64,000 nt of DNA from the NCBI GenBank assembly GCA_903813345.2, contig CAIIXF020000006.1, positions 11,784,348-11,848,347 on the forward strand. The letters are read 5' to 3'. The translations under genes and the position numbers were made by a program. Positions within the stretch are counted from its first letter, which is position 1; every line of letters begins with the position of its first letter. The notes beneath the pieces are model-generated. The model was given only the letters and a program-made list of their open reading frames with translations. It searched no databases and was not told the origin of the DNA. Shown here one piece after another: positions 41,448-64,000 of the stretch. This DNA is from Owenia fusiformis. Its lineage: Eukaryota > Annelida > Polychaeta > Sabellida > Oweniidae.

Positions 41448-44400
41448 CTGGAGAAAAGAGGATTCAACATGTTGAAGTTGCAGATTTTTCGCCAAACAAA
41501 CGGACTGATGGAGTTTATCATTGCCTTTCCCACTTGTCTGTTCTTAGTCTATCAAAAATAGTGGCATAATTTCAAAACCTCTCTTGATACGATTCCAATT
41601 TAAAGGTATCTTTGCTTATTATCAATCGACAAAAGACACACAATGTTCAAAAATTGTCTAATTTCAAAGGACCATCCTTAAATTTACTGCCCAGAAAATT
41701 TTTGAAGAGCAGCAACGTGTTTTTACTTCAAAATTATAAGAAAAGAGAGGTTTCACAAGTTTTTAGCCCAACATATTTAAATCTATAACACATTCACCAG
41801 ATTTATGCATCGTAGTTAAATTAAAACATGATGCGATAGTGGATACATTTTAGCTATAATCCACTGTGCAAAACCTTTCTAATAACATCATAACCAATAG
41901 GTGGCATTTGTACTGAATTTGTCTATAAGGGCAGAATCAGATCCATAGGGTGTGACAAAATTGGAAGCAACATGTACAATTGACCTTCCAATATATTCCT
42001 TACAATCCCAAATATATTATCTTCCAAAAGATAAATGATTGTTATAAATTGTTGAAGGTATAATAGTCCCTGATCTGGACCCTCTGAAAAAAAGTTTTGT
42101 TGTCCGTTACTTTCCCACATAAAATTATTGTACCGTTTGAAAGAACAGACTTCCCTCTTAAAGAAAACACCTCTTCTATTGATGTAAACAGGGGCAAAAG
42201 GCACCAAAACGGGGTTAGACAAGGTGGCATTCTGAAGTCTCACTTTCTTGTCATCACGATTCCAGGTAAACCATCAGACGGATTTACTTCAAATTTTCAC
42301 ACATGTTACATGGTAAGAAGTTCTAGAGCTGATTAACTTTGCGGCGGCCATCTTGCATTCTGGCGGCCATCTTGGAATTTTTTTCAGATAAATATTGTCA
42401 TCGCGATTCCACAAAAACCACATAACAGATGTACTTCAAATGTTCACACATGTTACATGGTAAAAAGTCCTAGACCTCATTATTTTTTCGGTGGCCATCT
42501 TGCATTCTGGCAGCCATCTTGGAAGTTTTAAGATAAATCTTGTCATCACGATTTCAGGAAATCCAAACGGATTTACTTCAAATTTCCACACATGTTACAT
42601 GGTAAGAAAATATACAGGTGAATAACTTTTCGGCAGCCATCTTGCATTCTGGCGGCCATCTTGGAAATTTGGGATAAATCTTGTCATCGTGATTCCAGGA
42701 AAACAACCTTACAGATTAACTTCAAATTTTCACACATGTTACATGGTATGAAGTTCTAGAGCTGATTAACTTTTCAGTGGCCATCTTGCATTCTGGCAGC
42801 CATTTTGGAAGGTTTATAGATAAATCTTGTAATCATGATTCCAGAAAAACCACTTCACAGTTTTACTTTGAATTTTCACACATGTTACATGGTATGAAGT
42901 TCTAGAGCTGACTAACTTTTCGGTGGCCATGTTGCATTCCGTCGGCCATCTTGGACGTTTTTAGATAAATCTTGTCATCACGATTCCATGAAAACCACGT
43001 AACAGTTTTACTTCAAATTTTCACACATGCTACATGGTAAGAAGTTATAGAGCTGATTAACTTTCCGATATCCATCTTGCATTCTGGTGGCCATCTTGGA
43101 AGTTTGTAGATAAATATATTTTTTTTATGTTTTATTCTATAGTCTTGTTAAGACCACTTTATAAACAGGTTTATTATTACTTTTATGACTATTAAATTAT
43201 ATAGTCTAGTTAACACCACTTTATAAACAGGTTTATTATTACTGGTGTAACTAACACAACGAAAAAAATATAATTAATTTATTTGATTTTATATAACATG
43301 AAATTCTTTTTTCTTTTCGATAAAACATTGCTTATTAGAAATATATTTAGTTGAAAACTTAGAGTAAAAAATCAGTTCTTCTATAACAAAGTTTATTTTG
43401 GTTCAGTAGATTTTTCTATGCATTATTTTTATGTCACCACCACTAGTGATTGGGTGACATGTTGTAATAGCTTCGAACGTTCAGTAGTTAATGTGTACTG
43501 TATACTTAACAAGGTGTGGTGACATTTTGCATGTTTCTGCATCATCACTACTATTGAAAGCTTATGTTGATATTGTAGCAGTGTTTTTTAAGTTCTTTTT
43601 TGTTGGTACAATTAGTTTCCAAACCCTATACTTATATCGATCTGACACACAGTTTTAGTGCAGGTTTAAGTGATTTTTGTTGATTATTAAACGCAAAGAG
43701 CACATGTGTCTCGAACTCGCAACATTGTGGATACAGAGCCCATTCACATAGTTTGACATGCTGGTGCTCTCAACCAGCTCGTTAGTTAATATCTGACTAA
43801 GAGACAGCTTGCTTTCCCGATGAAGAAACGTTATCTGCAGCTTTTATGAGTACTATAGTATCTACAACTATTTTTGATCTTATGAGTATTGGATATCATT
43901 ATTTTCAATTTTTCTTCAACATGTATTTTAATGACTTCAGTATGAATGGAATGTCCCTCGGAGTTGTGGTCGTTGATGAGGAATTGGTCATTGAACGGTG
44001 TGGATGCTGTTTATTCCCATATTAGATTATTGTCTTGGGATATTCAGGTTTGATTTTTGTTTGCCAGTTTTACACTTTACAGTTTGCTTTTCCCACTAGG
44101 TTGCTTTACACTTTTTTCCTTTCTCATTTGTCATTTTTGTTTATATTTAAGGATATGATACGCATGTCTCTCCTTCTGTGTGATCACCTGTCCAGAAGAT
44201 AATTCAACTGCATGAAGAACATTTAGTTGACATGATGCACAGTGAAAGGTTTTCTACACATTTACATTTTCGTTTAAAAGAGCTTTAATTCCGTTATATA
44301 CTCAGATCAAGGCCAATTTAGCATACATTTCGCTCTCAAAAATCGCTGTGCAACAATGGATTTCAAAGAAATGTTTGACGTTTTCAATAATCTTTTTTCT

Positions 44401-46953
44401 TTTTGATGAAATATAGTTATTTATTCTACAAATCAATCGATGTCATCGCAAAATGCATTTAAGTGGTATAAAGTACAGAAGCAGAGTAAAAATATGTATT
44501 TTAGAATATCACCATGTGTTACCCCATTGTAGCGCCTCTGGCCCATGTTTCTATCAATATAAAACATGATATCATTCACCAAATATGCATTTATGTCAAA
44601 TTATGTGGTTTAAAATACAGAAAAATAGATAACATTCTCCTTAGAATACCACCTTGTGTAACCCCACTTTACTGCCTTTTGCCCCTGTTTATATCAATAT
44701 AAAAGGTAGCATGTAACCTTCCTTGTAACATGTGTAAAAGTTTCAAGAAAATCAGTAAAGTGGTTTTCTTGGAATCATAATGACAAGATTTATCCAAAAA
44801 ACTTCCAAGATGGCCGCCAGAAAGCAAGATGGCCACCGAAAGGTTAATTAGCTCTAGAACTTCTTACCATGTAATATGTGTGAAAATTTGAAGTAAATCC
44901 GTTCGGTTTTCCTGAAATCGTGATGACAAGATTTATCTTTAAACTTCCAAGATGGCTGCCAGAATGCAAGATGGCCACCGAAAAAATAATGAGGTCTAGG
45001 ACTTTTTACCATGTTACATGTGTGAACATTTGAAGAACATCTGTTATGTTTTTTTTTCGAATCGCGATGACAATATTTATCTGAAAAAAATTCCAAGATG
45101 GCCGCCGGAATGCAAGATGGCCGCCGCAAAGTTAATCAGCTCTAGAACTTCTTACCATGTAACATGTGTGAAAATTTGAAGTACATCCGTCTAATGGTTT
45201 ACCTGGAATCGTGATGACAAGAAAGTGAAACTTCAGAATGCCACCTTGTCTAACCCCGTTTTGGTGCCTTTTGCCCCTGTTTACATCAATAGAAGAGGTG
45301 TTTTCTTTAGGAGGGAAGTCTGTTCTTTCAAACGGTACAATCATTTTATGTGGGAAAGTACCGGACAACAAAACCCCTTTTCTAGAGCCCTTTTGGAAAT
45401 CAGATCGGGGACTATAAGAACATGATACTGACTACTGTACTTGCTAGATCTGATTCTACCTTTGAATACCGTTCAAATCAAACATGTACATTAAAATACC
45501 TTCTGTCTCTGTGAGGGGTGTAGGAGCTCTCCAAAGGGTGACGCTTCAGGTTCTTCAAATGCTAACAGAGCTAATGTCCGTTCTAACTCAGAAAGGATCT
45601 CAGGGTTTTCCTCTCCCCGTTCTGCCAGATGAGTCTGTGCAAAGTCTAACGCTGCCTCTATGTTTCTGTCTCGTATGAGTTCTATAAGGTGTTGTTGCTG
45701 GAATAAATGACAAAATTTGTACAAATAACAATAAGGCTATACGAATACAATATAAGGGAAATGTGTTATTTTAGCTCATGAGTTGTCAAAAGGTGGTACC
45801 ATTTTTTATTTGACAAAAATCTTTTACAGAAAAATCATGGTATACTTTTCATCAAGAATTTTCTAAACCCCAAAACATATTTATATCAGAAATGCACTAC
45901 AAGAAAATGGTACCAGTGGGTGGGGGAACATGGTGAAGAAAGCTGATTTCTCCAAAACAAGGCAAAAACAAGACCTAGACTAAATTGTACCAGTACGGAC
46001 CCCATAAACTGGATACCAGCATTAGTTCAGTCTTACTTATATTTAAAATTGCAAGTTTCATTGAAAATTGTTGACGAACAAGTGAGCCTATTTGAAAGGC
46101 TCATCATATGAGCCAAAAGTATTTATCAAATGACAGCATTGCTATTACAGAAATATTTCTGGCAAATAAATGAATATGCAGAACACCTTTTTTTCTAATA
46201 CATGTTGCAATATGGGGAAATGGATGTATCGGTACATTGATACACAATGTTTCTGAGATATCTAACATTACATCAACCTTACTTGTAAATGAAAGAAGAG
46301 ATATCTATCATTATCTAATAACTCTGGCTGGAGATTATTAACCAATGAAATTGCTTCTTCTATTTTGCCTCGTTGAATTGCGTCTCTTATTTTGATCCTC
46401 TCATCCAGTGTATCAAGGTCTATATTTGGTTGTATACCAGATTCCATTTTGAACTTTTCTGCAGCTTCTCTGAACCCCTCTGAAATGAAAAAGTAACATA
46501 AGTAATTAATAAGTAAGTTTTTGTTAAGTGAAAAATAATGAAAAGTACGAAATAATCATCATTCAAACATGACCGTGCTCTATTTGAATTTCTAAACCAA
46601 TCAGAATGCAGCATAGCCAATAATGAACATCCATTATTTCTCCATACAGGCACGACCGTGCTCTATTCAATCTGCTTCCAGGAATCTATGTACATGTATT
46701 GTGTTGTATTAGGATTATGACACCTGGGAATGGCGAAAATAACAGCAAGTTTGGTTATTTCATTGACTTAAATCCTTAATTATAAATGAGGAACTGAAGG
46801 GGTGAGTAACATTTTATGCTTTCTACAGTTACCTGTGACAAGGTAGTTCATAATAAGGCTGTTCATATCTGCTCGCGTCACTTGTAACTTCTGTAGTCTC
46901 TCAAACCAATCATCCTTCATCTTATCACCAGATGATTTCTCATTATAATTCAT
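41274..46953 (-). CDS. GID8: GID8 (TWA1), CTLH E3 ligase subunit, complete, 4 exons, 229 aa
   Basis: GID8 is a core scaffold subunit of the GID/CTLH RING ubiquitin ligase, bridging the RanBP9/10-type subunit and the RING module. Exons in transcript order: 46953-46833, 46479-46283, 45697-45500 and 41447-41274 (stop TGA). 690 bp gives 229 residues; human GID8 has 228. The N region [20 protein letters not shown] and NYLVTEGF form the LisH motif (about residues 17-48). [20 protein letters not shown] and [16 protein letters not shown] form CTLH (about 53-110). The remainder, with [18 protein letters not shown] and [20 protein letters not shown], is the CRA region. Similarity to vertebrate GID8 is very high throughout. 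Sequence before the ATG (AATTCTAG|GTAACA) looks like an acceptor, so a non-coding first exon upstream is likely. Intron 3 is 4 kb and holds a large foldback. Confidence 0.97.
43128..43247. repeat. two-copy ~64-bp direct repeat
   Basis: TATAGTCTTGTTAAGACCAC and TATAGTCTAGTTAACACCAC each precede TTTATAAACAGGTTTATTAT. Lies in the unpaired middle of the GID8-intron foldback. Confidence 0.75.
43430..43545. mobile_element. third ATGTCACCAC-type element
   Basis: ATGTCACCACCACTAGTGAT at left and GTGGTGACATTTTGCATG at right are inverted ends shared with 2350-2755 and 22830-22970. Confidence 0.5.
45500..45697 (-). CDS. GID8: GID8 coding exon 3 (residues 107-172)
   Basis: Encodes [40 protein letters not shown] and [13 protein letters not shown], matching [20 protein letters not shown] and PFGDLLHTMQRQK. 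Confidence 0.97.
46283..46479 (-). CDS. GID8: GID8 coding exon 2 (residues 41-106)
   Basis: Completes LisH ([16 protein letters not shown]) and carries most of CTLH ([30 protein letters not shown]). Donor CAA|GTAAGG. Confidence 0.97.
46833..46953 (-). CDS. GID8: GID8 coding exon 1 (residues 1-40)
   Basis: Encodes [20 protein letters not shown] and [20 protein letters not shown], equivalent to vertebrate [20 protein letters not shown]. Donor CAG|GTAACT, phase 1. Confidence 0.95.
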
Positions 46954-49277: not shown

Positions 49278-49335
49278 AGCGATAAGGCGAAATATTTGAA
49301 GAAGTGTTTTTTTTAGATTTTCTTGAACCGGAAAT
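49278..49335 (-). promoter_or_regulatory. candidate GID8 non-coding first exon and ETS-like promoter motif
   Basis: On the minus strand, ATTTCCGGT (complement of ACCGGAAAT at 49327-49335, an ETS-type core) is followed about 50 bp later by CGCT|GTAAGT, a strong donor at 49278. It could splice to the apparent acceptor just before the GID8 ATG. Unsupported by transcripts. Confidence 0.25.
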
Positions 49336-49402
49336 GAATGAGAAAGGGTCGATGGCAAACACTGACAGAACCCGGGTTTCCTAAACCCGTGCTGATGGTT
49401 TT

Positions 49403-49600
49403 CGAAGCACGTACTGAAATAGTCTCGCAACCAGTGCTATTTACTGAACGAAACGACACGAAAATCCCGGGACAGCGTCCTATCAGAGTATATATGGATA
49501 CGAAACACGTACTAAAATAGTCTCGCAACCAGTGCTATTTACTGAACGAAACGACACAAAAACCCCGGGACAGCGTCCTATCAGAGTATTTATGGATTTA
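49403..49600. repeat. two-copy 98-bp tandem repeat plus a diverged third copy at 49922-50036
   Basis: AGTCTCGCAACCAGTGCTAT occurs at 49421 and 49519. Both are followed by GAACGAAACGACAC and GACAGCGTCCTATCAGAGTA. A third, more diverged copy begins AGTCTCGAAACCAGTGCTAT at about 49929. Confidence 0.85.
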
Positions 49601-52600
49601 AGGATAGGACCCCCGTATGATCGACCATGCTATCAGTTTGAATCTATCATTAACAAACTTATGTAACAGGCCCGTAGCCAGGACCTTCTACCATTGCCAA
49701 AAATGCTTTCAAAACCATGCAGCTGAGCACTTTTTCAAGGGTTTTGGTCATTTTTTGGCCATTTCAAAAGTGAATCCCTTGGATTTTTATAAAAATGACC
49801 CCCCCCCCCCCCGTCAAATCCCGGCTACAGCCCAGATTTTAACTTAAAACAATAAAATGCTGTATAAAACCCAGGAGATATATCATCCTCCGACTCATTT
49901 ATCCTGCATCCCTTGACCCGTATTTAAATAGTCTCGAAACCAGTGCTATTTTAACTTTTGCCAGTGAGAGGCGCCATAAACTGAACGAAATGCAAAACAC
50001 TCTAAACCCGGGATGTAGCATCCTTTGGTATTCATGAATTGGATTAATTGCCCGACCTTTTACCTTTCTGTCAGTTTGAATTCATGCCGATATAGGCTCT
50101 CAAATAGAATAAAATTTGTTCTCGAAGATGAATTGGCTATAGCAATTAGGAGTTGGAATCCTTATGTGTTCAAGTTTACGTGTTCAAAGGTATTTGGGAT
50201 TAGATGAGGTTTTAATTAATGTTATAATTTCTGATAATAGCTGGCCTTGAACTACATTGAAGTATTTGGAGTTGATGCTGTATTCAAGTCTGGACCAAAT
50301 AAACTAATAAAGAAAGTTTGATGTACGGATTTATTTATTTCTATTGCAAATAACTATTTACACATGCCATTTCAAGGTCAACCCATGTGACTATTCATTT
50401 TATCAAGCGATTTATAAAGTTTTATAATTATGCATATACCTGTTGACTCACTTCAATCCTGAACATAAACATTAATTTTGTCTCCATTTTTGGATGTGGC
50501 TAATTCCTATTGCCCCTACTGTGGACTAGTGACAATATATATTTTGCAAAAGCCAAAAATGTATGCATTCAGTATTGAAACATCAAGTCCATTGTACATC
50601 GATCACAAATAAAGGCACATTTACATATATTCCAATAAATTCAAATACTGTAAAACCTGTAAATAGTGACCACCTATTGAGCCACAAAAAGTGTTCACGG
50701 TAGGTATTTTCTAACTAGATGGGATTATATACAGGAGTCGATGTGAAATCTATCTAAAGTGGTGATAACTAGAGAGAGGTGTGCACTAAAACAGGTTCTA
50801 CTGTTGTATATAAGATATAAAAAATGTAATACATATACCTGTAATATTATCTCTAATGAGCGCACAATTCCAATGAGTGCAAATGTGACTTTTTTATTGA
50901 ATTTTGTCTCAATATTAACACATTGATTTTGATTAACAGAACTGATTGATATATTATAGTGAGTGATGATTTTCAACATGTTTAATGCAAATAAAAATAG
51001 TAGCTGTAGAGTATGAAAACCTAAGTGATCACAGCTAAAAGGATCATAATCGATATTTTTCTCAATATCATACCCTTGAGTTGGCAATAACACAACAGAA
51101 AATGCACCGATTCAGGTATGTCCACATAAACTAAAATGCCTACATAATGAATAATGCAATTACTGGTTAAATTTGACAAGAAAAAACAATTTCCATAACC
51201 CCATGATTAAATGTCAATGGAAGCCCTCAAAAACTCAAAAATACAATAAACAAAAGAACCGCTTAATGCTACTTCAATTTTTGAATTTTTAGAAGAAATC
51301 CAATGTTTACCAACAACAGACGCCTTGTTATTCTCAGAGGCAAACTGTGTAAGAACCACTAATTGAATATCTTTAAGATCTTCCAAATGTAATGAGCTAA
51401 CCAATCTCCAATTTTTTTGCATGATATATCCTGTATTGAAATAACAGTGTTCATATTTATTCGCCAAGTAGAAATCTTATACTCTCCACTTATTGGGGCA
51501 CCACAATTCATCCATTTAAGATTTCTCTTATTAAATGACTACATGTACTTTACAAAGTTATTGCAAATGAATATCTTTACATAAAGTTAACAAGGCATTT
51601 CAACAAAAGATGGTTTGCACACATTCATTGTAACCTTGAAACAAACACCGATTTCCATCTAAATAACACCCTGAGACTATAAAAATGTATTAGCTATCGA
51701 GAGTCTGTGATATTTTTCACGAAATATATGTTTTCGTAGGTACTATAAATTCAAATACTTCTGATCAATTTACTTAAAGTCCCCGTCTAAAGTTTGAAAA
51801 TATTTTTTTATAATTCATTTACTATTTGTTAGGACTTAAAAAGTGATTTTAGAGATTTTTGAACAAAAAAAAAATTTTGAAAAAAAAGTTGTGAGCATTT
51901 CATTTCTCAAATATTCAAATTTCCCGCCATATTTTTTAAAAGGTTGAAATTTCTTAATCATTAAATATTTCTTAATGCATTTCAAAAAAGATTATCTTTT
52001 TAACACCAATGCAAAGATTGAACATAAGACACACTATTTCAATAATAAAATGTCATATTTAATGGGCCACTTCAATGTTTTAGCTTATCACAAATATTTT
52101 GAAACATTAGTGATGTCACTAAGGTAACAAAAACTTTTTGAAAAAAATTGAATTTTTTTTTTCAATGTCAATCTTTTCTAAATATGCTAGACTTTCATAA
52201 AAAACAATGTTGATTGTCTAACCAGGTTAAAAGGAAGAATAAATTATGTTTTAGATATCATTGTACCATTGGTTTCTATGAGAACTAAAATTTTGAAATG
52301 CATTTTTCTCAGAACCATTTTCATGCACTGATAAGTTCATTTCTCGCTTGTTTATCAACAGATTTTCTTAATTTTTTCGGCAAAACACATGGGAGGATGA
52401 ATGCTATGCATTGGTATGAATTGTGGCTAATTAGAAGATATGAGTGACCTCTAAAAGTTGGTTTTAAATAAATTCACAAATTTTGGAACAAAAAGTCTAT
52501 CAAAAACCACTTTTTGAAATTTAAAAAAAAAGTTTCACATATCACACTTTGATAACATTGGGTAAGACTACAATATAAGCCAAAGTGGTTTAAACTTTAC

Positions 52601-52667
52601 ACGGGGCCTTTAATAAATTCTATTAATCACTACTTCATCAATATTTCGTTAGCTTGCAAACAACCAA

Positions 52668-53180
52668 ACAACTCATGTTGTAGAACCTGATGATGTTCTG
52701 ACTCGGGTTGTTGTAGAACCTGATGATGTTCTGACGCATTTTGTTGTAGAACCTTGGTATGTTCTGACTCATGTTGTTGTAGAACCTGGTGATGTTCTGA
52801 CTCCTGTTGTTGTAGAACCTGGGGATGTTCTGACTCATGTTGTTGTAGAACTTGGTGATGGATATTCTGACTCATGTTGTTGCAGAACCTGGGGATGTTC
52901 TGACTCATGTTGTTGTAGAACCTTGGGATGTTCTGACTCATGTTGTTGTAGAACCTTGGGATGTTCTGACTCATGTTGTTGTAGAACCTTGGGATGTTCT
53001 GACTCATGTTGTTGTAGAACCTTGGGATGTTCTGACTCATGTTGTAGAACCTGGTGATGTTCTGACTCATGTTGTAGAACCTGGTGATAGATGTTCTGAC
53101 TCATGTTGTAGCACCTTGGGATGTTCTGAATCATGTTGTTGTAGAACCTGGGGATGTTCTGACTCATGTTGTAGAACCTA
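52668..53180. repeat. 33-bp minisatellite, about 16 copies
   Basis: Unit about GTTCTGACTCATGTTGTTGT followed by AGAACCTTGGGAT; copies vary by loss of GTT. Because 33 is a multiple of three, long frames exist on both strands (an 11-residue SQNIPRFYNNM-type repeat on minus). No start context, splice sites or domain support a gene. Confidence 0.9.
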
Positions 53181-53710
53181 CAATTCACAATTTACAACTA
53201 GAAATTGGCAACTCCAAGGTGTAGGGAATCCCAACGAACATATATAAATCATGAATTGTACAGTCACAATGTAATATTTACCATCGCACTCTTCCCTTCA
53301 ATAAATAGATCATTGTAGTATAATATCTCTAAGTTATGGCCTATTCCAGCCATTTTTAATTTTCTGAGAAAAGAATCAGAAAAACAATACCATAATTGTG
53401 ATCTACTCTAAAATCCCTTCAGTTTTAGTATAATATATAGCCATACTTCTAAGATGAAGAAAATTGAAAAGGTTTAATGGTGATAAATATGATCTTAAAC
53501 AATGCTGAATGACTTAGTTTTTAACATTTGTTTAGAATAACATTTTTGGCTCACCCTGTGCCTTAATTGTTTCTTATTTCAAGTCATATGAAGAGATAGT
53601 TTAAAAATTGCATAAATTGTTGGACTCTGAAAAAAATCTTCAGTGTTTTTCCTCAAAATCAGTGCAAGCATCATTTCCCAACTTTTTGGAATAAAGGTAC
53701 TCATTCTCAC

Positions 53711-53929
53711 CTGATCTGTGCGGTCACCATACTGTGACAACTCCAGGAGACAGCTCTCTAATGTGCCCTTGGTATCTGCGAGTCGTTTTGTCAAAGTTTC
53801 ATAATCGTAGTGAAGGTTTTGCCGGATGGTGTCTCGACCCAATACCAAGAAATTTGTCAGAGTTTTCTCTCCCCGTGTCTGCATGGTATGAAGCAGGCTC
53901 TGACCATCCTCTATTTGTACAGGAATATC
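53711..53929 (-). pseudogene. spectrin-like exon e (intact, last recognised)
   Basis: Encodes DIPVQIEDGQSLLHTMQTRG, GRDTIRQNLHYDYETLTKRL and LADTKGTLESCLLELSQYGD, then RTDQ|GTGAGA. 73 codons, phase 0. No continuation was found between here and 47 kb. Confidence 0.7.
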
Positions 53930-54323
53930 CTTTTTGGAGAAATTATACTTTCATTTACTTACAGTCACTTTGTTTGCTTTTAGTTTTAGCTTTGAGCTTT
54001 AATAATCTGAGCAATTACGCATGATAATTTTAAATGAGTTGCATTTTTCATTCTCCGTTGGCATTGAACTTGTAATATTTTGAATGTAAAATATATTAGA
54101 GAAATACATTTGTACTGTATAACTACGAGAGGGTTTTTAATAGCAAATAAGAAGACCTTCACTCGTACATATGAGAGAGAAATGTAACTTTGGATAATCT
54201 CTACAATTTCTTTTGAGACATCTGTTTATAAGGGTTGAGGGTTCAAGTATGTGGGAATACAATTTTTATGGAACACCCTGTGTATAATTTCGGCTTCATT
54301 CTGTAAAATATCCCAAAATTTAC

Positions 54324-54465
54324 CTTGAGTAATTGAGCTTGTGTGGTGTGCCTATCCCCCTCCAGGTTATTCAGTGGTTTCTCCATCTATTCATTCTGTG
54401 ACATGGTCCAGTGCCTCTTGGTATATGTGGTTTGACAATACATTGTCACATTCCCTTAATAAATC
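54324..54465 (-). pseudogene. spectrin-like exon d with 4-nt frameshift
   Basis: First part reads DLLRECDNVLSNHIYQEALD and HVTE; after GAATGAATAGATGG the frame changes to MEKPLNNLEGDRHTTQAQLL. The 142-bp exon is one codon-multiple (138) plus 4. The break falls at the expected helix-A tryptophan. Confidence 0.65.
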
Positions 54466-54559
54466 CTTAAAGAGAGATCAGATTAAAGAAATGAGATCAA
54501 ATGGATATCCATTTGCAAGAACAAACACCCTGATTTACATATACATTTGTACACGATAG

Positions 54560-54700
54560 ATTGCAGGGTCAATTAGTCCCCATGACAACTGATTTCCAAG
54601 ACAACTGGTTGCCAAGAACCAACTCATCCCAAAGTCAATTGATCCCCAAGACAACTCATCCCTAAGACAATTGATCCTATAATCAACTCATCCTCAATGT
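54560..54700. repeat. degenerate ~20-bp tandem repeat
   Basis: Variants of CCAAGACAACTGATCCCAA repeat six to eight times within the intron between exons c and d of the spectrin-like locus. Confidence 0.6.
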
Positions 54701-54779
54701 TGGAAGTTTATTTTTGTACCAGTAATATTAAAATTACTCAATGTAACAGTGCATCATATAAAGTATCTGTAGATCATAC

Positions 54780-54923
54780 CTCCACTTTGTCGAGAAGCAT
54801 GTGGTATCTCTCAACAACAAGGTTCTTCTCTCAGGTAAAATGAGGGTCACCACTCTGTGTCAGCAACTCTGAGAATTTCTCCCTCCTTCTGTCTACCAAA
54901 CTTTTCTCACTCATAAGTGTCAG
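54780..54923 (-). pseudogene. spectrin-like exon c with in-frame TGA
   Basis: Reads LTLMSEKSLVDRRREKFSEL, LTQSGDPHFT, stop, EKNLVVERYHMLLDKVE. The TGA at 54833-54831 is one base from GGA. 144 bp, phase 0 both ends. Confidence 0.65.
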
Positions 54924-55309
54924 CTTCAAAAGATATATGCGAATTACTTGTGTTCTGTGAAAACATGATTCATAAAATTTTAGATTTGCATATTGATAAA
55001 GCTAGAGTAGCTTCCAAAATTCAAACGGTAATATGACTCTAAAATGCTATTCTTAACTGTCAAATAAGCCCTGCCCCCCCCCCCCCCCCCTCTACAGCCA
55101 AAATCAAAATAGATGGTATCAAGTTTAATATATCAATGGAAAGATCGACCAAACTTACATAATTATCATATATCTGATTCCTATAAATCAATGTCACAAA
55201 TTGCTACATTGAATCAATTGAAGTGACTATAAAACTAGAAACATGGCAATTTGCCATATTTTCAGGATTTTAATTATCAGGCACCAGATAAGGCATTTTT
55301 AATCAAGTT

Positions 55310-55490
55310 GGTGCAAAATTCTCATTTCACAATTCAGACCAAAACTGGTAAAACTATGCCCATTTTTCATTATTTTTCTCATTTTTAAGTGGGTGCAAAT
55401 GAATTTTTAGGAAGATGAAATAAAGCTGGTTTTAAAATTCTCAGGTGGGTGCTATGCCTTCTTGCTTTAATGCTGAGCAGATAACTGTAT
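55310..55490. repeat. dispersed repeat, direct copy at 57400-57570
   Basis: Both stretches share GGTGCAAAA, TCTCATTT.CACAATT.AGAC, GTGGGTGCAAA and a CTTGCTTTA.TGCTG end. The second copy lies beyond the spectrin-like exons. Confidence 0.6.
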
Positions 55491-55721
55491 GCATTGTATA
55501 TGGCAGTGACTTGAACAAATATGTGGATAATGTCAGTGAGATGTGTATAAAATATGAGACTTTGTGATTTAATGTAACTTTGGGTGATTTAGCTCTAAGA
55601 TTATGATTTTCTTCTTCCTTGTAGGACAGTAAGTTCTGAAATGAATACATAACAAAATATTTGGAAATTAAATATTAAAATTATTCATTGAAATAAAGAT
55701 CCAGACTTTCATTGAACATAC

Positions 55722-55914
55722 CTGGACATTCTGTAATTTAGCATGCACATGTGATCTGTCCCCCTGTGTGAATGTATTGCTTCTAAGTTTGGCCTCGAGG
55801 TCATCTAGGCTCTGTTACAAAGCCTTGTATAGTCTTCCATAGCCCTCATGTTCAATCACAGCCTTTTCCTGTTTCATACACTGTTTCTTACAGCTACTAA
55901 CTAGTGCATGGTAC
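55722..55914 (-). pseudogene. spectrin-like exon b with in-frame TAA
   Basis: Reads YHALVSSCKKQCMKQEKAV, EGYGRLYKAL, stop, QSLDDLEAKLRSNTFTQGD and HAKLQNVQ. The TAA (55817-55815) differs by one base from CAA (Gln). Both flanks are strong spectrin helix sequence. Confidence 0.65.
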
Positions 55915-56138
55915 CTACAGATAGGACAATTAAGTGTTACTCATTGTGTTTGAGGAATGACATGTTTTTATGATGACTAAGACCCAGTTGCATGTAGTTT
56001 TGTGAGGGTTTGAAGCTAGTTGTCTTTAAATGCACTCCATATTCATCAAAAAAGTGAGAATATAAAACAAGAATAATGTAGTAATATTGTGTTAATATTG
56101 CAATTTTACACATTTTTATATCCAAAATATTAATAACA

Positions 56139-56627
56139 CACTGGTGATCCACTCGATTACGATGGTTACCGAAAAGGTTCGTTTCGGTAACAAAATGTTG
56201 GAACGTCGAAGGTATGATATTTCTTTTTTCCTAATTTCATGCGTTGTAGGCAGAATCCCCACGACATTTTTTCACACAAACGTGTATCATGTTTTAGAAA
56301 AGGTACATGTTTGTGAAAAAATAGCTCGGAAGACAACAGAATCGTCGATTTAATTCCTCACTTTAGTTACAGCAATGATATTCGTTAAAAGTGCACATCT
56401 TAACTGTTTTTCAAAATATTGTTTCTGTAACTTAAGTGAGGAATTAAAATGACGATTCAGTTGTCTTCTGAACTACTTGTTCGCAAATATGTACATTTTC
56501 TTAAACATATGTGATAGATATATGTTGTCGGTTTGTGATAAAAATGTTGTGGTAATTCTGCCTATAATGTGTGAAATAAGGAAAAAAGAAAAATCGTACC
56601 TTGGACATTCGGAGTGGGTTACCAGTG
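56139..56627. mobile_element. 489-bp foldback with CACTGGT ends
   Basis: Left end CACTGGTGATCCACTCG and right end CGGAGTGGGTTACCAGTG are inverted; long arms share GTGAGGAATTAAA and GAAGACAAC-type sequence. Flanked by ATAACA at 56133-56138 and 56628-56633. Lies in an intron of the spectrin-like pseudogene. No coding role for the frame at 56144-56353. Confidence 0.72.
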
Positions 56628-56649
56628 ATAACAGATCTTTGTAAAATAC

Positions 56650-56774
56650 CTGGAAATTATCTGTGAGGCAAGGTTGGCTACTCTGGTGTTAGATGTGCTT
56701 ACTGATAGGCTCCACCCATTCTCACTCAAAGAGTCAAGCTCTGATCCATACACTATCATCTTTCTTGATGCAGT
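56650..56774 (-). pseudogene. spectrin-like exon a (intact)
   Basis: Encodes TASRKMIVYGSELDSLSENG, then WSLSVSTSNTRVANLASQ and IIS. Acceptor TTCCAG, donor AG|GTATTT, phase 2 end joining exon b to give an RYHAL sequence. No lesion. Confidence 0.65.
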
Positions 56775-59032
56775 CTGGAAATAAAACATTATACATCTTG
56801 TTTGGACCTCTAATGAAAAAAATAATTGATCCTAATTGAACAACAAGTGTTTAAAGCTTTGGTAAAGACTAGTTAAGTGTTTCAGGATGATGTCATAACA
56901 TGTCATGTCAGGGATTATTTTGACAAAACTTATATTATCACAAAAAGAATGTCATTGCTGGCTAATTAAAGTAATTCTAATATAAACTACAATCAAAATT
57001 GAACAGAGGGGGGGGGTGAATGGATGGGGGAGTAATATGTCTAAACCTAAACCAGAAAACTGTGCTCATTGTGAAAATATCATTGCTCATTGTGAAAGTG
57101 AAGCTACTTTTGTTCTGATATTTCTTACATCAAATGGCAGCTATCTTGTTTTTCCCCCTTCAAATTAAACTGGCGGGAAATTCAAAATTTGAAAAATAAT
57201 TAAATATACTTATCACATACATTTAACTGAGGGACCAAAAGGGCATATATCCAGACTCATCCTTTCCACAAATTTGTGAGTTGATAATTAAACTCAGTAA
57301 CTCAGGAACACTTGATAACCCCCCCCCCCCGCTTGAAAAATAATGCTGGGGAGATCACTGAATGCCTTAGAGTATATTTGCATAATTAATCTCAGTGGGT
57401 GGCACTCAGGTGGGTGCAAAAACTCTCATTTTCACAATTTAGACAAAAATTGGTGAGATATGCCAATGATTTTTTTCATTTTTATGTGGGTGCAAACTGA
57501 TTTTCAGGTGGGTGCAAGCATATTTTCAGGTGGTTGCTGCGCCCATCTTGCTTTATGCTGGGGAGATCACTGCCAGTTGCATCTAATTAAATGAACCTAT
57601 TGACATATTGATTGTGATTTAACATTAAAATTGTGACACTTAAAAGAGTAAATGAATTTTTAATCTTTAAAGGTTTTTCAACATTGTGTAAATGGGGATT
57701 TAGCTTGAGCTTTTTCAGATGATTTAATTGAAGCTAGCTATATTGATAGAAAATAACATATAGAATTCAAAGAACTTATAACTGATACTATTCGTTATTA
57801 ATGAGTGGAATTAAGTAATTTGCAACTTTACTCTGTTACTGTTTGTAATAGCCGATTTTTTTAAGGCACTTTTTTATTTAATTTTGCACCACTGTAATAA
57901 TACTGTCACCACCCATTAATTTTCATTCAAAATTTTACCGCTCACTTTTGAAAAATTAGGGAGAACACTGAATATGCTATTAAATAGAAGAAACTGTGGT
58001 CTTTAATTAATGGTTACAAATGCAGATCAATTAAAAACATGACTTAAAATAACATGACTTTATGGAAACCATCTGATTTATAAAAAAATCAACATCACAT
58101 TTAACAGCTCTCTCCATTTTTTAGTTTTAAAAGATGTACTGAATAGTGTTGAGTTGCCAAGCTGAGAACATCTTCCCAAAAATCTCTGCAACCTTATGCA
58201 GTCATCATTTCCATATCATCATTGCACACAAATATCTTTCTAACAATACATTCAAAAGAAAGGTGGACACATCAAGGACTAAGGCACACCCAAAGAGTAC
58301 ATTAAATCAACATAAAGGTTGTGATTATTAAGAATCATGGCTTATGAAAACTCTTGGAAATGTTGGAAAATTCAGAATGAATATATATTTTTAATACTCA
58401 CATAATAGTACATTTTCTCTTCTTAAACACCAGGACATCGCATCTCAGACATACATTCATCTTCTGAAAGTACAAAATGGGGTTCATAATTTAGATCTAA
58501 AACATTTGAGCAGCTCTTGCTAAGTTTGAGTATGTATGCTTGGTATTTTGATGCAATCCTCAATGGATTCACATGTTTCTCTCTATTAATCCATTCATTT
58601 GTTGAAATTAACAGATCTCTAAAAAACTCAAATTATTATACTAGATTCCTCTTTTAAACTCAAAAAGTAGAAAACAGCAATTGTGAATAATTCCAAATGA
58701 AGTAGGATTATTTCAATCAATATTCCAACATATGAACTCTCACATAGAGAGACTGATTGAGAGAGTGAATGAGTTACTGAACTTCTGATTGAGAGTGAGA
58801 TAATGACTAAGGAAGTAAGTGACTTACTAAGTGACTGAGTAAGTGGCTTGCTGGCTGGCTTGCTGGGTGGCTGGATGGCTGGCTGGCTGATCAACTCCAC
58901 ATTATGGAGATAAGCTTAAACATAAGTTAAGACATAAGTTAAGACAAGAGATCTCTTAGGGAACTCGACAATACTGATTCTGATTGACATTTTTACTTGA
59001 ATTTTTGGACAGCCCGTCCGTGGTCCCGTCCC
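56775..59032. other. region without recognisable gene
   Basis: Contains C-runs, the second copy of a dispersed repeat at 57400-57570 and a GGCTGGCT/GAGTGA simple-sequence stretch at 58745-58890. No exon continuing the spectrin-like locus could be supported. Confidence 0.5.
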
Positions 59033-59216
59033 CAAAAATAAGAAATCAGGAGACCATTGTGCAATAATATTTGGAAAAGTATATTGATATTGTATGAATG
59101 ACATTTGGATATTTCAGATTATTTAGTTTTTTTTGTGCAATAACCCTGTGCCCTCTTATAATGAATTTCAGCCATGTTACAATGTATCCTTTTGAAAATA
59201 CTATGGCAGAGAAGCA

Positions 59217-60954
59217 CACATGCTATCTATTGCAAGACTTATGCCTAGCACAACTGTCACCATGTTATTAAGTGTTCTTAAGTTTCGCAAGGATCTTGCC
59301 ATGGTCGTGGTGGTATTATCGTGAAAGCCTGGTATAACCGTGACAATGCTATATTATATTGCAAGGCCTGTCATGACTGTGGTAATGTTTAAGCCTGATA
59401 TGACAGTCGCAATGGTTGCAAGGCCTGTCACGACCGTGGTAATGTTAAAGCACAATATGACTGTGACAATGGTTATATTAAATAGCATTTAGTAGCATTG
59501 CAAATTTCATAGAATGATTAACTACCTTAAATATGTGAATCTAGACTTCTATACATGAACATGGTACTCACGCACATCGATACATAAAATTTTAGAATCA
59601 TTTAACTCATAATTCATTTCCGAACACTATAATTTTAATCTCATTCAAGAACGAGAAACATTGTCACAGTCATATCAGGCCTTATTTATAATAAAGCACT
59701 GTCGCGGTCATATCAGGGTTTAACATTACCACGGTCATGACACTGGCCTTGCAATATAATATTACATTGTCAAGGTTATACCAGGCTTTCACGATAACAC
59801 TACCACGGTCATGGCAGGATCATTGTGCAAGTTTGTGGAAATGAATTATGAGTTAAAGTAGTAGTAGTATCCTAGATTTACATATTTAAGGTAGATAAAT
59901 GATGACGTTTTCGATTACAGTATTCTCATGCTACTAAATGTCACTAATATAACCATTGTCACGGTCATATTGTGCTTTAACATTACCACAGTCATGACAG
60001 GCCTTGCAACCATTGTCATGGTCATATCAGGTTATCCCGTTCCCGGACTATAGTCCTGCACTGAGAGCATTCATTTGCCTGTACGATTACAACTTGGGAG
60101 AATTTTTTACTGATCTTACACTTCAGATACCTACTTCAATAGATTCCTTGGTAATTTAGCATTCTTTTCGTGTAGTTGAATCCACAATTGTCTGGGTTTA
60201 TCGGCAGAACGAAGACATTTCCGTTTTTGATCGCAATATTTGCGTGTAACATTTAACTTATTTCAACCGTCAAATTCCTCCATATTGGTACTTCCGGGCT
60301 ACATCCGGGACAGCCAAACGGGGGATTCCCCTTTTAAATCCAACCGCCATTTTGAAAAGTGATGGAATCTCTCTCGATGAAAAAGAGAAAATGTTCCCGT
60401 TCTGCCGATATACCCAGACAATCGGCGGTTCCAATATATTAGAAGTTACATCTTGAGTTCTATAATGCATTGAGGTAGGTATCTTAAGTGTAAGGGGCGT
60501 AGATAATTCTCCCAAGTTGTAATCGTACAGGCAAATGAATGCTCTCAGTGCAGGACTATAGTCCGGGAACGGGATAAATATCAGGCTTTAACATTATGAT
60601 GGTCATGACAGGCCTTGTAACCATTGTCACCGTCATATCAGGCTTTAACATTACCACGGTCATGTCAGGCCTTGCAATATAGTATAGTATTGTCACGGTC
60701 ATATCAGGCTTTAACATTACCACGGTCATGACAGACCATGCGATATAATATAGCATTGTCACTGTTATACCAGGCTATCACGATAACACTTCCACGGTCA
60801 TGGCAGGATCCTTGCGAAACTTAAAATTACTTAATAACATGGTGACGGTTGTGCCAGGCATAGGTCTTGCAACAGATAGGGTCTCCATAAAAATACTTGA
60901 TAACATGGTGACGATTGTGCCAGTCATACATGTAAGTCTTGTAGATAGGGTCTC
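59217..60954. mobile_element. 1.74-kb tandem-armed foldback with 8-bp TSD GAGAAGCA
   Basis: Flanked by GAGAAGCA at 59209-59216 and 60955-60962. Ends are imperfectly inverted (CTATCTATTGCAAGAC at left against GTCTTGTAGATAG at right). Both arms are arrays of GTCATGACAGGCCTTGCAA / TTACCACGGTCATG-type units in opposite orientation. A further element is inserted near the middle. No coding frame. Confidence 0.8.
60032..60577. mobile_element. 546-bp foldback with TTATCCCGTTCCCGG ends and perfect 8-bp TSD
   Basis: Ends TTATCCCGTTCCCGGACTAT and its reverse complement are flanked by ATATCAGG at 60024-60031 and 60578-60585. Arms match almost to the centre, including GTACGATTACAACTTGGGAG and TCGGCAGAACG. 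The TSD sequence is part of the host array (GTCATATCAGG), confirming insertion into it. Confidence 0.87.
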
Positions 60955-61356
60955 GAGAAGCATCAACATATAAGAGGTCACACACTTTATTAGCCAAACT
61001 AGAACTAATTCAAGATAAACGAAAGTCATTTATGTACAATAGGAATATGGCAGTGAAATTTTTTGAAAATCAAAATCAATGGGCGATAATTCATCATACT
61101 CACTTTACGGGAAAATTACAAGTTTTATGTTGAATTTATCAGAAAAAATCATTACCCTGTTTGATCCTCGCTTAGTCTTGTTCACTTTGAGCAACTTCTT
61201 ACCTTCAGATCGGCTATATTGATTACAAACTAACGGTACAAAACTTCCAGAAAGATATTTCGGCAAAATAGCACGGTTTAAGAGCGCTCTGATTGGTTGG
61301 ATTTGTGGCACGGGTTAGGAGCGCCTCTATCGGTTGGACTTCGAACTACATTCCAG

Positions 61357-63683
61357 CACGGGTGTGAAAGCCCAACTGTTCTGGGCTACCCAAGTGTTCT
61401 GTCTCTTGCCCAACTGTTCTGACAACCTAAGTGTTCCGAGTTCACATATATTTTATAATATCTTAAAATTCACAAGAGAGGGTGCCAAAAGTTAAAAGTG
61501 CCACACGATTAAGAAAGAGAGCCAGAAAATGTCAAAAAATTGTCCATTATTAGAAATACGCACCCATTTTTTTCAAAAGGACAATTTTCCTGAACAAGTT
61601 GATACATACTTAGTATTCCTGAAACTGAGACCCAGTTAGCCTTGCCCAAGTCGGTCTCTTTTACTATCTTAATTTCTATTATGACCGCCTTGTACCAAAG
61701 AGAAAGCCACGTGCTTTACCGACTCAATGTTTATGTCGGTAAAATTTGACCAATCAACGACGGCCCTGCAGCGTTAGCTCATTATTATGCGCGGTCAAAA
61801 ACAAGTACACTTTTTAGTTTTCGCCGGGACTTTTCACGAACAAATCCTGCATGAATTCATCATCAAAATACAAATATTATATCAGATAAATATCAATCAG
61901 AGTTTAGTGGATGCATCGATCGGTAACCGGAGGTGAGAAGATTTCAACAATAAACGTTGAAACGATCGCTGAATTCAAATGAACATGTACATGTGATGTA
62001 GGCTGAGATTCCATCACTGATCGAAGACTACATGACCCGCTACATTGGACTAGGTCTTGCATTTTCATCGCAAAATCAGTTTTAAATCTATTGCATGATT
62101 TAATTTATATTAATGACTTACATTCCCTATGTACATTTAATTACATAATATATTGTAACTCTAAAGAAACGATCGATCAGATCATTGAATTTCAAGTCGT
62201 AGACGGGAAGATTGCTTTGCTTATGCATGCGGGTCAACGATTGGTCAATTAGCCTGAAGTCACACGTCGTGTCCACGCGTATATCTGTCAATATATAAGG
62301 TTTCGCGATACCCCTGATAGCGTAGGTATTATGGAAATCTCGAAACCGTTGAATATCTTAGCATAATATCAGCAGCGATGTATTGGATTGTACAAGGCGG
62401 TAATAATTCAAGATCAGGTAAGTAAAAAAAATACCGACTTGGGCAAGGCTAAGACCCAGTCTACATATATCGATATATTCTGTCCAAATATCCTATTGCT
62501 CAGGAGTGTTCCATGGTGCAAAGGTCGAACACCCGGGGATTTGACACTCCTCAATGGGTGCCCTGTTACACTCCCCTCCATAAGTTAGGCAACATTAGCT
62601 CCCCCATTGAACTACGTGTTAAAAGCCTCTTTACCTTTGAATTTTTATTTACTTAACCTACCATGAAAATACTTATACTATTAACGGAAACGTAATTTGA
62701 CTTTATTTCCAATACCTCAACATTTTCTCAATTTTTCCCCTCAATTACAATAAGTTGAAAATTGATGATAAATTTGATGAATTTTGAAAATCGACATTCC
62801 CATGTTAACCAATGGGAAATGATAGGTTTGCCGCAAGTCATATGACAGAATATCCATCCATCCGAGTCCTTGCAAAAAAATACGAATAAGGCAGGCAATT
62901 GAATTAGTGTTAACTTTATTTAACAAAAAATTGATGTTTCTTCAGGTTCAACAAAGTTATAGGGCTTTAAAGTCAAAATAGTTTTTCAAAAAACCTTTCC
63001 CATTGAAATAACTCAGGAGGCGAAAAATTATTTTCAAAAATGACTTTGAAGCGCTGTAACTTTAGTATTCATCAAATAAACTAAACACTTAGTGTACAAA
63101 AAAGTTAGACAATTCAATTTTCTATAATTTTTTTTGCTGAATCTTTTACTGAAAATATATCCTGATTTCTGATTTGCCCGAACCCTCCATTTCCCATTGA
63201 ATTACATGGGAATGACGATTTTCAAAAATTCATTAAATTTATCATCAATTTTCGACCTATTCTAATTGAGGAAAAAATTGAGAAATTTTGGAGGTATTGA
63301 AAATAAGGTCAAGTTACGTTTCCATTAATATTATAAGTTATCTCATCGCCGGTTAAGTAAATAAAAATTCAAACCTAAAGAGGCTTTAACACGTAGTTCA
63401 ATGGGGGAGCTAAGGTTGCCAAACTTATAGAGGGGAGTGTAGTTATATATAAAAAAAGGAAAATCTTTTGTACATGAGACAGCCACATTATAAGTGATTT
63501 GATTAACTTAATTTCAACAGTCATCTCTGTAGAAATCTAAAATTGGATTAGAAATTGAAAAATCACCATATCGAGTGTATTTGCTAAAATAAGTAAACCC
63601 AGAATACTTGGGTCAATTCAGAATATTTCGGCAGGAGTCGGAATACTTGGGTAGCCCGGAACACTTGGAGCTTCACACACGGG
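61357..63683. repeat. outer inverted repeat enclosing two further foldbacks
   Basis: CTGGGCTACCCAAGTGTTCT (about 61381) and its relative CGGAATACTTGGGTAGCCC (about 63639) are inverted, with flanking GTGTGAAAGC / GCTTCACACAC also inverted. Within lie an inverted pair at 61636-61695 and 62390-62450 (CCTTGCCCAAGTCGGT / ACCGACTTGGGCAAGG) and the element at 62569-63439. Confidence 0.65.
62569..63439. mobile_element. 871-bp foldback MITE with TA duplication
   Basis: Ends CACTCCCCTC and GAGGGGAGTG are flanked by TA at 62567-62568 and 63440-63441. Arms of about 265 bp share AACTACGTGTTAAAAGCCTC and AACGGAAACGTAA in inverse sense. The left inner part is the reverse complement of the core at 18901-19235. 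No coding frame. Confidence 0.8.
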
Positions 63684-63733
63684 TTTGATCTGAGGCCCAG
63701 GGTTTGATCGAACCTCAAACATGGCTAAATTCT

Positions 63734-63830
63734 AGCACGGGTTTGATCAACCTCAAACACGTGCTAAACTTAAGCACGGGTTTGATCAATCTCAAACACG
63801 TGCTAAACTTTAGCACGTGTTTGATGTGTA
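63734..63830. repeat. 39-bp tandem repeat with CACGTG motifs
   Basis: AGCACGGGTTTGATCAACCT with CAAACACGTGCTAAACTTA repeats with starts at 63734, 63773 and 63812. Each unit is itself partly palindromic (AGCACG...CGTGCT). Confidence 0.8.
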
Positions 63831-64000
63831 TCCGGCATCGAGTGCTTCTGAAATGAATGGAGTGCGCAGCTGCAATAACCTCAAACCAAAACAATTAAAA
63901 CTTTATTGTTAATTGCAATAAGTAAAGCTATATTCAGCCAAATAAAACTCATTGTAATTATACCTTATATTAAAGTGATCTTATATCAACTCAAGCCTAA

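What the first reader, a model, noticed from the sequence alone, without database searches (positions are those of the whole stretch)
59033..61037. Three transposons nested with readable target duplications and an unoccupied relative in the same window
Seen directly: a copy of the 26.0-kb foldback is split at GAGAAGCA by a 1.74-kb tandem-armed foldback, and that element is split at ATATCAGG by a 546-bp foldback. Both 8-bp duplications are perfect. The 26-kb copy has the matching site (GAGAAACA) empty. This gives an explicit order of events and exact element borders, which is rare in raw sequence.
Basis: seen in the sequence. Interest (0 to 1): 0.75.

Follow-up and report, generated by a model that had tools for sequence, protein, structure and literature searches.

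The report
Nested transposons inside a 14.5-kb transposon
Three nested repeats read correctly from raw sequence turn out to sit inside a fourth, 14.5-kb mobile element that has carried most of the nest to many places in an animal genome, so only the innermost insertion happened at this spot; the parts are of known kinds.

Summary
The sequence reading is right. An A-type foldback (relative of the one at 26.0 kb) is split at GAGAAGCA by a tandem-armed foldback B, and B is split at ATATCAGG by a 546-bp element C. Both 8-bp duplications are exact, and the 26.0-kb relative has the site unoccupied.

C is an independent unit: 19 of 20 fetched copies have exact duplications of their own (17 of 8 bp, 2 of 9 bp). 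B was not inserted here: 20 of 20 fetched near-identical B copies have the same A-like left flank. Of 16 D-family copies tested, 15 have an exact 8-bp duplication and one has 7 of 8.

So B entered A in an ancestor of D and travelled as cargo; D then landed here; C landed last (B is uninterrupted in 20 of 20 other copies). B is still a real unit: some older B relatives elsewhere end at the same borders with their own duplications.

No transposase was recognised in D (12 of 52 open stretches scanned), and its best open frame shows no sign of selection, so D is probably moved by a protein encoded elsewhere. Superfamily unresolved.

The parts
49340..63850 (+). Element D, the outer 14,511-bp mobile unit; ends GAGAAAGGGTCGATGGC... 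and ...GGCATCGAGTGCTTCTG
   Evidence: Borders set by where genome copies begin and end; exact 8-bp duplications in 10 of 10 D1 copies tested, window included; D2 4 of 5 exact and one 7 of 8, E 1 of 1
49332..49339 (.). Target duplication AAATGAAT, left of D
63851..63858 (.). Target duplication AAATGAAT, right of D
59033..59216 (+). Left part of the A-type foldback remnant inside D
   Evidence: 26054-26233 aligns to 59033-59213 at 83%; no gap at the joined site
60955..61048 (+). Right part of the A-type remnant, right arm truncated (end approximate)
59209..59216 (.). GAGAAGCA, left duplication flanking B
   Evidence: same in 20 of 20 fetched near-identical copies
60955..60962 (.). GAGAAGCA, right duplication flanking B
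   Evidence: exact in 17 of 20 fetched copies, GAAAAGCA in one (L017); in L020 the match breaks off before the border and in L024 the border was not located
59217..60031 (+). B, tandem-armed foldback, left part (starts CACATGCTATCT)
60586..60954 (+). B, right part (ends AGATAGGGTCTC; its reverse complement starts GAGACCCTATCT)
60032..60577 (.). C, 546-bp inverted-repeat element
   Evidence: 40 of 40 scored places (best of 1176 candidates) matched over the full length; of 20 fetched, 17 have an exact 8-bp, 2 an exact 9-bp and 1 a 7-of-8 duplication
60024..60031 (.). ATATCAGG, left duplication flanking C
60578..60585 (.). ATATCAGG, right duplication flanking C
   Evidence: the joined site is spanned and C is absent in 20 of 20 other B copies
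61637..62451 (.). G, a further nested 815-bp element in D, inverted ends TAGCCTTGCCCAAGTCGGT, 9-bp duplication AGACCCAGT at 61628-61636 and 62452-62460
   Evidence: present in the window, L065 and L068; unoccupied in L066, L067, L070, L071, L072; undecided in L069
26011..26413 (.).
   Evidence: 40 of 40 scored places (best of 1770 candidates) 98-100%

Best explanation
The region is an apparently non-coding DNA transposon, D (14.5 kb), that carries older transposons as cargo. Order of events: (1) an A-type foldback entered the ancestor of the D family; (2) foldback B entered that A at GAGAAGCA, before subfamilies D1, D2 and E separated; (3) the D lineage lost the outer A ends and some copies gained element G; (4) D spread as one unit, each copy making an 8-bp target duplication, and one landed here at AAATGAAT; (5) element C landed last, in this copy, at ATATCAGG. 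Shown: borders, duplications, unoccupied sites, shared junctions. Inferred: movement is cut-and-paste by a transposase supplied in trans that recognises the short imperfect ends; and, more weakly, that B and D are moved by related transposases, since each has one end starting GAGA and one starting CA with weakly similar inner bases.
For: D duplications: 10 of 10 D1 exact, D2 4 of 5 exact plus one 7 of 8, E 1 of 1 exact. Fetched near-identical B copies have the same left junction in 20 of 20 and the same right junction in 18 of 20 (17 exact, one with one base changed); in the eight extended by about 3 kb the flanks match the window for kilobases at 97-99.8%. An E-type relative (L110) holds B in a nearly complete A. 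20 fetched A copies lack B. B relatives outside near-identical D copies: of 17 fetched, 8 show both ends; exact 8-bp duplication in L093, L095 and L109 (read), 7 of 8 in L099. C absent and joined site spanned in 20 of 20 other B copies. G occupied in 3, unoccupied in 5, undecided in 1 of 9 D copies. No Pfam family at its cut-off in 11 stretches of D scanned; the best frame has pN about equal to or above pS against four relatives.
Against: No transposase was found for D, B or C, so mobilisation in trans is not shown; only 12 of the 52 open stretches listed were scanned. Of the 8 two-ended B relatives, L094 and L103 have 6 of 8 bases alike and L097 and L107 have no duplication; 9 of 17 have only one recognisable end. 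The two ends of D agree at only 11 of 17 bases. The B-D end similarity is modest (9 and 10 of 17; reached by 0.54% and 0.17% of shuffles), was noticed before it was tested, and crossed pairs do nearly as well (8 of 17; 0.7% and 3.6%). D2 copies average 90-93% in 53200-58900 but 97-99% at the right end, so recombination between subfamilies complicates dating.
Confidence: 0.9

Rival explanations
1. One reading: three independent insertions that happened one after another at this locus (A, then B, then C).
For: Both 8-bp duplications are perfect and A at 26 kb is unoccupied.
Against: 20 of 20 fetched near-identical B copies have the same A flank, inside a unit whose outer borders carry a different duplication at each locus tested.
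Confidence: 0.05
2. D is not a transposon but a segmental duplication or recombination-spread repeat whose ends coincide.
For: Copies are long, without recognised genes, and uneven in identity along their length.
Against: All 16 copies tested have an 8-bp duplication at the same element ends (15 exact, one 7 of 8), each a different sequence; segmental duplication does not do this.
Confidence: 0.02
3. D is autonomous: it encodes a transposase in short exons that family models do not recognise.
For: A 123-codon frame at 53582-53950 (-) is stop-free in 9 of the 10 best full-length matches and recurs at 43 places; 40 of the 52 open stretches were not scanned.
Against: pN and pS against four relatives: 0.027/0.028, 0.038/0.026, 0.035/0.013, 0.035/0.013, from few changes, the last two relatives being near-identical to each other; stops or frame breaks in many D2 and E copies; no Pfam match for it.
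Confidence: 0.07

Closest known systems
Tetris foldback transposon of Drosophila virilis (PMC4079207; passages seen)
   Same: Long inverted arms with internal tandem repeats, no conserved open frame, duplications of 8-10 bp, autonomous partner not found; resembles B
   Different: B units are about 27-66 bp rather than about 220 bp; B's two outermost ends differ in their first bases; sequences not compared
Tm1 Mutator/Foldback family of root-knot nematodes (PMC3169594; passages seen)
   Same: Composite repeated arms, asymmetric outermost 7-bp motifs, duplications of 8-10 bp, and a published nest of one inverted-repeat element inside another
   Different: Tm1 duplications are mostly 9 bp and one Tm1 group encodes a putative transposase; none found here; sequences not compared
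Galileo, P superfamily, Drosophila (PMC3573991; passages seen)
   Same: Arms that lengthen and shorten by tandem units, and chimeric copies; like B arm-length variation and the uneven identity of D2
   Different: 7-bp duplications and a known transposase; D and B make 8-bp duplications
TU elements of sea urchin (features recalled; the paper is only cited inside PMC4079207)
   Same: As recalled, foldback arms with tandem repeats and 8-bp duplications
   Different: not compared

Membership tests
Foldback (FB/TU/Tetris/Tm1-like) for B | long inverted arms made of tandem repeats | tested here: met
Foldback (FB/TU/Tetris/Tm1-like) for B | target duplications of 7-10 bp at independent insertions | tested here: met
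   exact 8 bp in L093, L095, L109 and 7 of 8 in L099, out of 17 fetched relatives of which 8 show both ends; L094 and L103 6 of 8, L097 and L107 none
Foldback (FB/TU/Tetris/Tm1-like) for B | arm length varies between copies | tested here: met
   18 of 20 fetched copies show both borders; lengths 1097-2149 bp, the longest possibly holding a further insert
Mutator superfamily (for B or D) | MULE transposase; duplications mostly 9 bp (recalled) | tested here: inconclusive
   duplications are 8 bp; no transposase match in the stretches scanned
hAT or P superfamily (for B, C or D) | transposase of that family with 8-bp duplication (recalled) | tested here: inconclusive
   8-bp duplication met; no transposase found; no position of the C or D duplications is invariant
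Short non-autonomous inverted-repeat element (MITE) for C | short, high copy number, uniform length, inverted ends, own duplications, no known domain | tested here: met
   one frame of C scanned, no Pfam match
Tc1/mariner-like MITE for A | TA target duplication (recalled) | tested here: inconclusive
   most of 20 fetched A copies have TA at both borders, but TA cannot be told from the last bases of the inverted ends

The most novel reading that the evidence does not exclude
D, B and smaller relatives found by end patterns (L136 1697 bp, L137 2626 bp, L138 2052 bp, L130 937 bp, L140 313 bp) form one clade of elements, from a few hundred bases to over 14 kb, that typically have unlike ends (one starting GAGA, the other CA; exceptions L130 and L136), moved in trans by a single transposase that known family models do not recognise.
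Probability: 0.2. Interest if true: 0.55.

Novelty: new member of a known kind. Interest (0 to 1): 0.38.

Why it matters
The nest is a layered record with readable borders: outer element, cargo elements and last insertion, with occupied and unoccupied versions at other loci. Because one B insertion has been carried to 22 near-identical places counting the window, it is a natural experiment on how fast foldback arms gain and lose repeat units (1097-2149 bp in 18 copies) relative to base changes (D1 copies 98-100% alike). It is also a warning: perfect duplications around a nested element do not show that the nesting happened at that locus.

Tried and rejected
Rejected: A as a 26-kb element (about 400 bp at 26.0 kb). 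Rejected: B as a fresh local insertion. No known transposase or captured domain in D: Pfam on 11 stretches of D (two, nine; three of these lie in G and one straddles its left border) and one of C, 12 of the 52 listed; best match E 0.18, below that family's cut-off. One frame against solved structures: two matches, E 0.6 and 0.7. The frame 53582-53950 (-) sought genome-wide: 70 matches at 43 places; set beside they lie in D-family copies except one (contig C247) that I could not place; no host gene source seen.

Autonomous partner of D sought by its ends: C-end pattern 49 matches against 1 in the reversed control, G-end pattern 136 against 1, of which the first 100 were listed. Three 10-kb stretches and 16 further stretches, 14 of them examined, were fetched; they gave short two-ended relatives (L136 and L137 exact 8-bp duplications, L138 and L130 7 of 8, L140 6 of 8) and no recognised transposase, but the frames listed were only read by eye, not scanned. 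L143 and L144 were not used. A 51-bp stretch with both D ends (L139) has no clean duplication. Rfam at gathering threshold: nothing in the window. Organism not identified: a paper search on one guess gave no useful listing. Papers on foldbacks and nests: listings; passages of three papers. Whether these families are already named was not tested, as no repeat library is held.

Full report
What was checked. GAGAAGCA is at 59209-59216 and 60955-60962, ATATCAGG at 60024-60031 and 60578-60585. C (60032-60577) is an inverted-repeat element with perfect outer ends. B (59217-60031 plus 60586-60954, 1184 bp without C and its second duplication) has inverted arms with tandem units. With B and one duplication left out, the A flanks align to 26054-26322 with no gap at the junction, and that relative reads GAGAAACA there. 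The '26.0-kb foldback' is about 400 bp long and lies at 26.0 kb. The A copy at 59 kb lacks about 40 outer bases on the left and most of its right arm.

C is an independent unit. All 40 scored genome places, the best of 1176 candidates and the window among them, match over the full length. I fetched 20 of the 39 others: 17 have an exact 8-bp duplication, 2 an exact 9-bp one, 1 has 7 of 8. The genome has 859 matches to the C end with up to 2 mismatches against 0 for the reversed pattern, which suggests some 400 copies. The window copy differs from the majority of 20 equal-length copies at 9 of 546 bases, the others at 2-11. In 20 of 20 other B copies the ATATCAGG site is spanned and C is absent (small gaps in 4 of them), so C arrived in this copy of D.

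B is not a local insertion. Near-identical B places number 22 with the window. I fetched 20 of the 21 others; C98 was left out because its match starts inside B. All 20 have the left flank CTATGGCAGAGAAGCA; 17 have GAGAAGCA on the right, one has GAAAAGCA, one breaks off before the border and in one the border was not located. Eight of them, extended by about 3 kb, match the window for kilobases on both sides at about 97-99.8%, with gaps where elements differ.

The outer element. Genome matches begin at window 49340: 20 places start at the first base, ten at 98-100% (window included) and ten at 87-92%. They end at 63850: 20 places at 97-100% reach the last base, the window and the short contig C132 included. 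The window has AAATGAAT on both sides. In the window and nine other D1 copies the flanks are exact 8-bp duplications, all different (10 of 10). In subfamily D2 4 of 5 are exact and one is 7 of 8; one E-type copy is exact. D is therefore a mobile unit, 14,511 bp here; the ten D1 copies span 12.9 to 27.2 kb between ends (coordinates; lengths). What fills the longest copies was not examined.

Order of A and B. In the E-type relative L110, B lies in a nearly complete A (26014-26237 on the left of B, 26229-26401 on the right); L111 and L112 show the same left junction, but their right sides are interrupted by another A copy or do not align to the end. E-type copies match D at about 87-96% by segment outside the 33-bp minisatellite. 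A more distant D-type copy on C12 has B, 81% identical, at the same place (L103: GAGAGGCA / AAGAAGCA). So B entered A before these branches split. B as a unit of its own is supported by relatives elsewhere: of 17 fetched, 8 show both ends (L107 and L109 with an altered right end). Three have exact 8-bp duplications (L093, L095, and L109 read), one has 7 of 8 (L099), two have 6 of 8 (L094, and L103 in its D context), two have none (L097, L107). The other 9 have one recognisable end.

A further layer. G (61637-62451, 815 bp) has inverted ends and a 9-bp duplication AGACCCAGT. It is present in the window, L065 (left border seen) and L068, unoccupied in five copies, undecided in L069. Being shared by copies at different loci, it too was carried in.

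Coding. Of 52 open stretches of 60 or more codons listed from window 49000 on, 12 were scanned: 11 in D, three of them within G and one straddling its border, and one in C. None matched a Pfam family at its cut-off; the best had E 0.18. The longest non-repetitive frame outside C, or nearly so (53582-53950, minus), has pN about equal to or above pS against four relatives, from 8 to 13 changes each, two of the relatives being near-identical to each other. It is found at 43 places, all but one placed in D-family copies (one search set beside). I read D as non-autonomous. No autonomous partner was identified in the stretches fetched, whose frames were only read by eye.

Ends. D has one end GAGAAAGGGTCGATGGC and the other CAGAAGCACTCGATGCC; B has GAGACCCTATCTGTTGC and CACATGCTATCTATTGC. 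D and B agree at 9 of 17 (GAGA ends) and 10 of 17 (CA ends), reached by 0.54% and 0.17% of shuffles; crossed pairs reach 8 of 17 (0.7% and 3.6%). The likeness was noticed before it was tested. A third group has GAGAAAGAGTCGAAGGC at one end and, in L137 and L138, CAGAAGTACTCGAAGGC at the other; L136 and L130 differ in the first bases of the latter. Read from the flanks printed, duplications are exact in L136 and L137 and 7 of 8 in L138 and L130. A shared transposase is plausible, not shown.

Comparison. B is built like Tetris and Tm1 foldbacks (passages); Galileo shows the same kind of arm-length change and chimeras. An inverted-repeat element nested in another with duplications is described for Tm1, so this nest is not new in kind. 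Whether D, B and C are already named was not tested.

Verdict. Observation confirmed; interpretation partly supported. The main addition is the outer element D and the demonstration that most of the nest was transported here ready-made.

Noticed in passing
18032-19970: Another foldback with 119-bp tandem units in inverted arms, ends GGCATGAACTTGGTGTAAGA, exact 8-bp duplication ACATGGAT; its middle (18900-19180) matches 62718-63000 inside D inverted at 90%.
   Followed up: partly
42064-45416: Foldback with tandem arms of about 145 bp; many genome matches begin or end near these bases; ends TAGTCCC...GGGACTA, TAA next to both.
   Followed up: partly
61637-62451: Element G with a 9-bp duplication, present in some D copies and unoccupied in others: a marker for a D sublineage.
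   Followed up: yes
53200-58900 and 63450-63850: Several D copies average 90-93% identity to the window in the first stretch but 97-99% in the second and 97-99.7% in most tiles from 56200 on, suggesting recombination between D subfamilies.
   Followed up: partly
52676-53172: 33-bp minisatellite inside D, longer in E copies (about 2.5 kb in L114).
   Followed up: no
7191-10735: Minus-strand frames with vinculin-family matches (E 3.9e-14, above the cut-off, and 1.9e-8, below it): probably a host gene to the left of D.
   Followed up: no
L139:61-111 (G000:C5:31182991-31183041): A 51-bp stretch made of the two D ends almost back to back, without a clean duplication.
   Followed up: partly
L137:42-2667 and L136:36-1732: Relatives with D-like ends and exact 8-bp duplications, L137 with repeated inner units, from a group with dozens of end matches.
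   Followed up: partly
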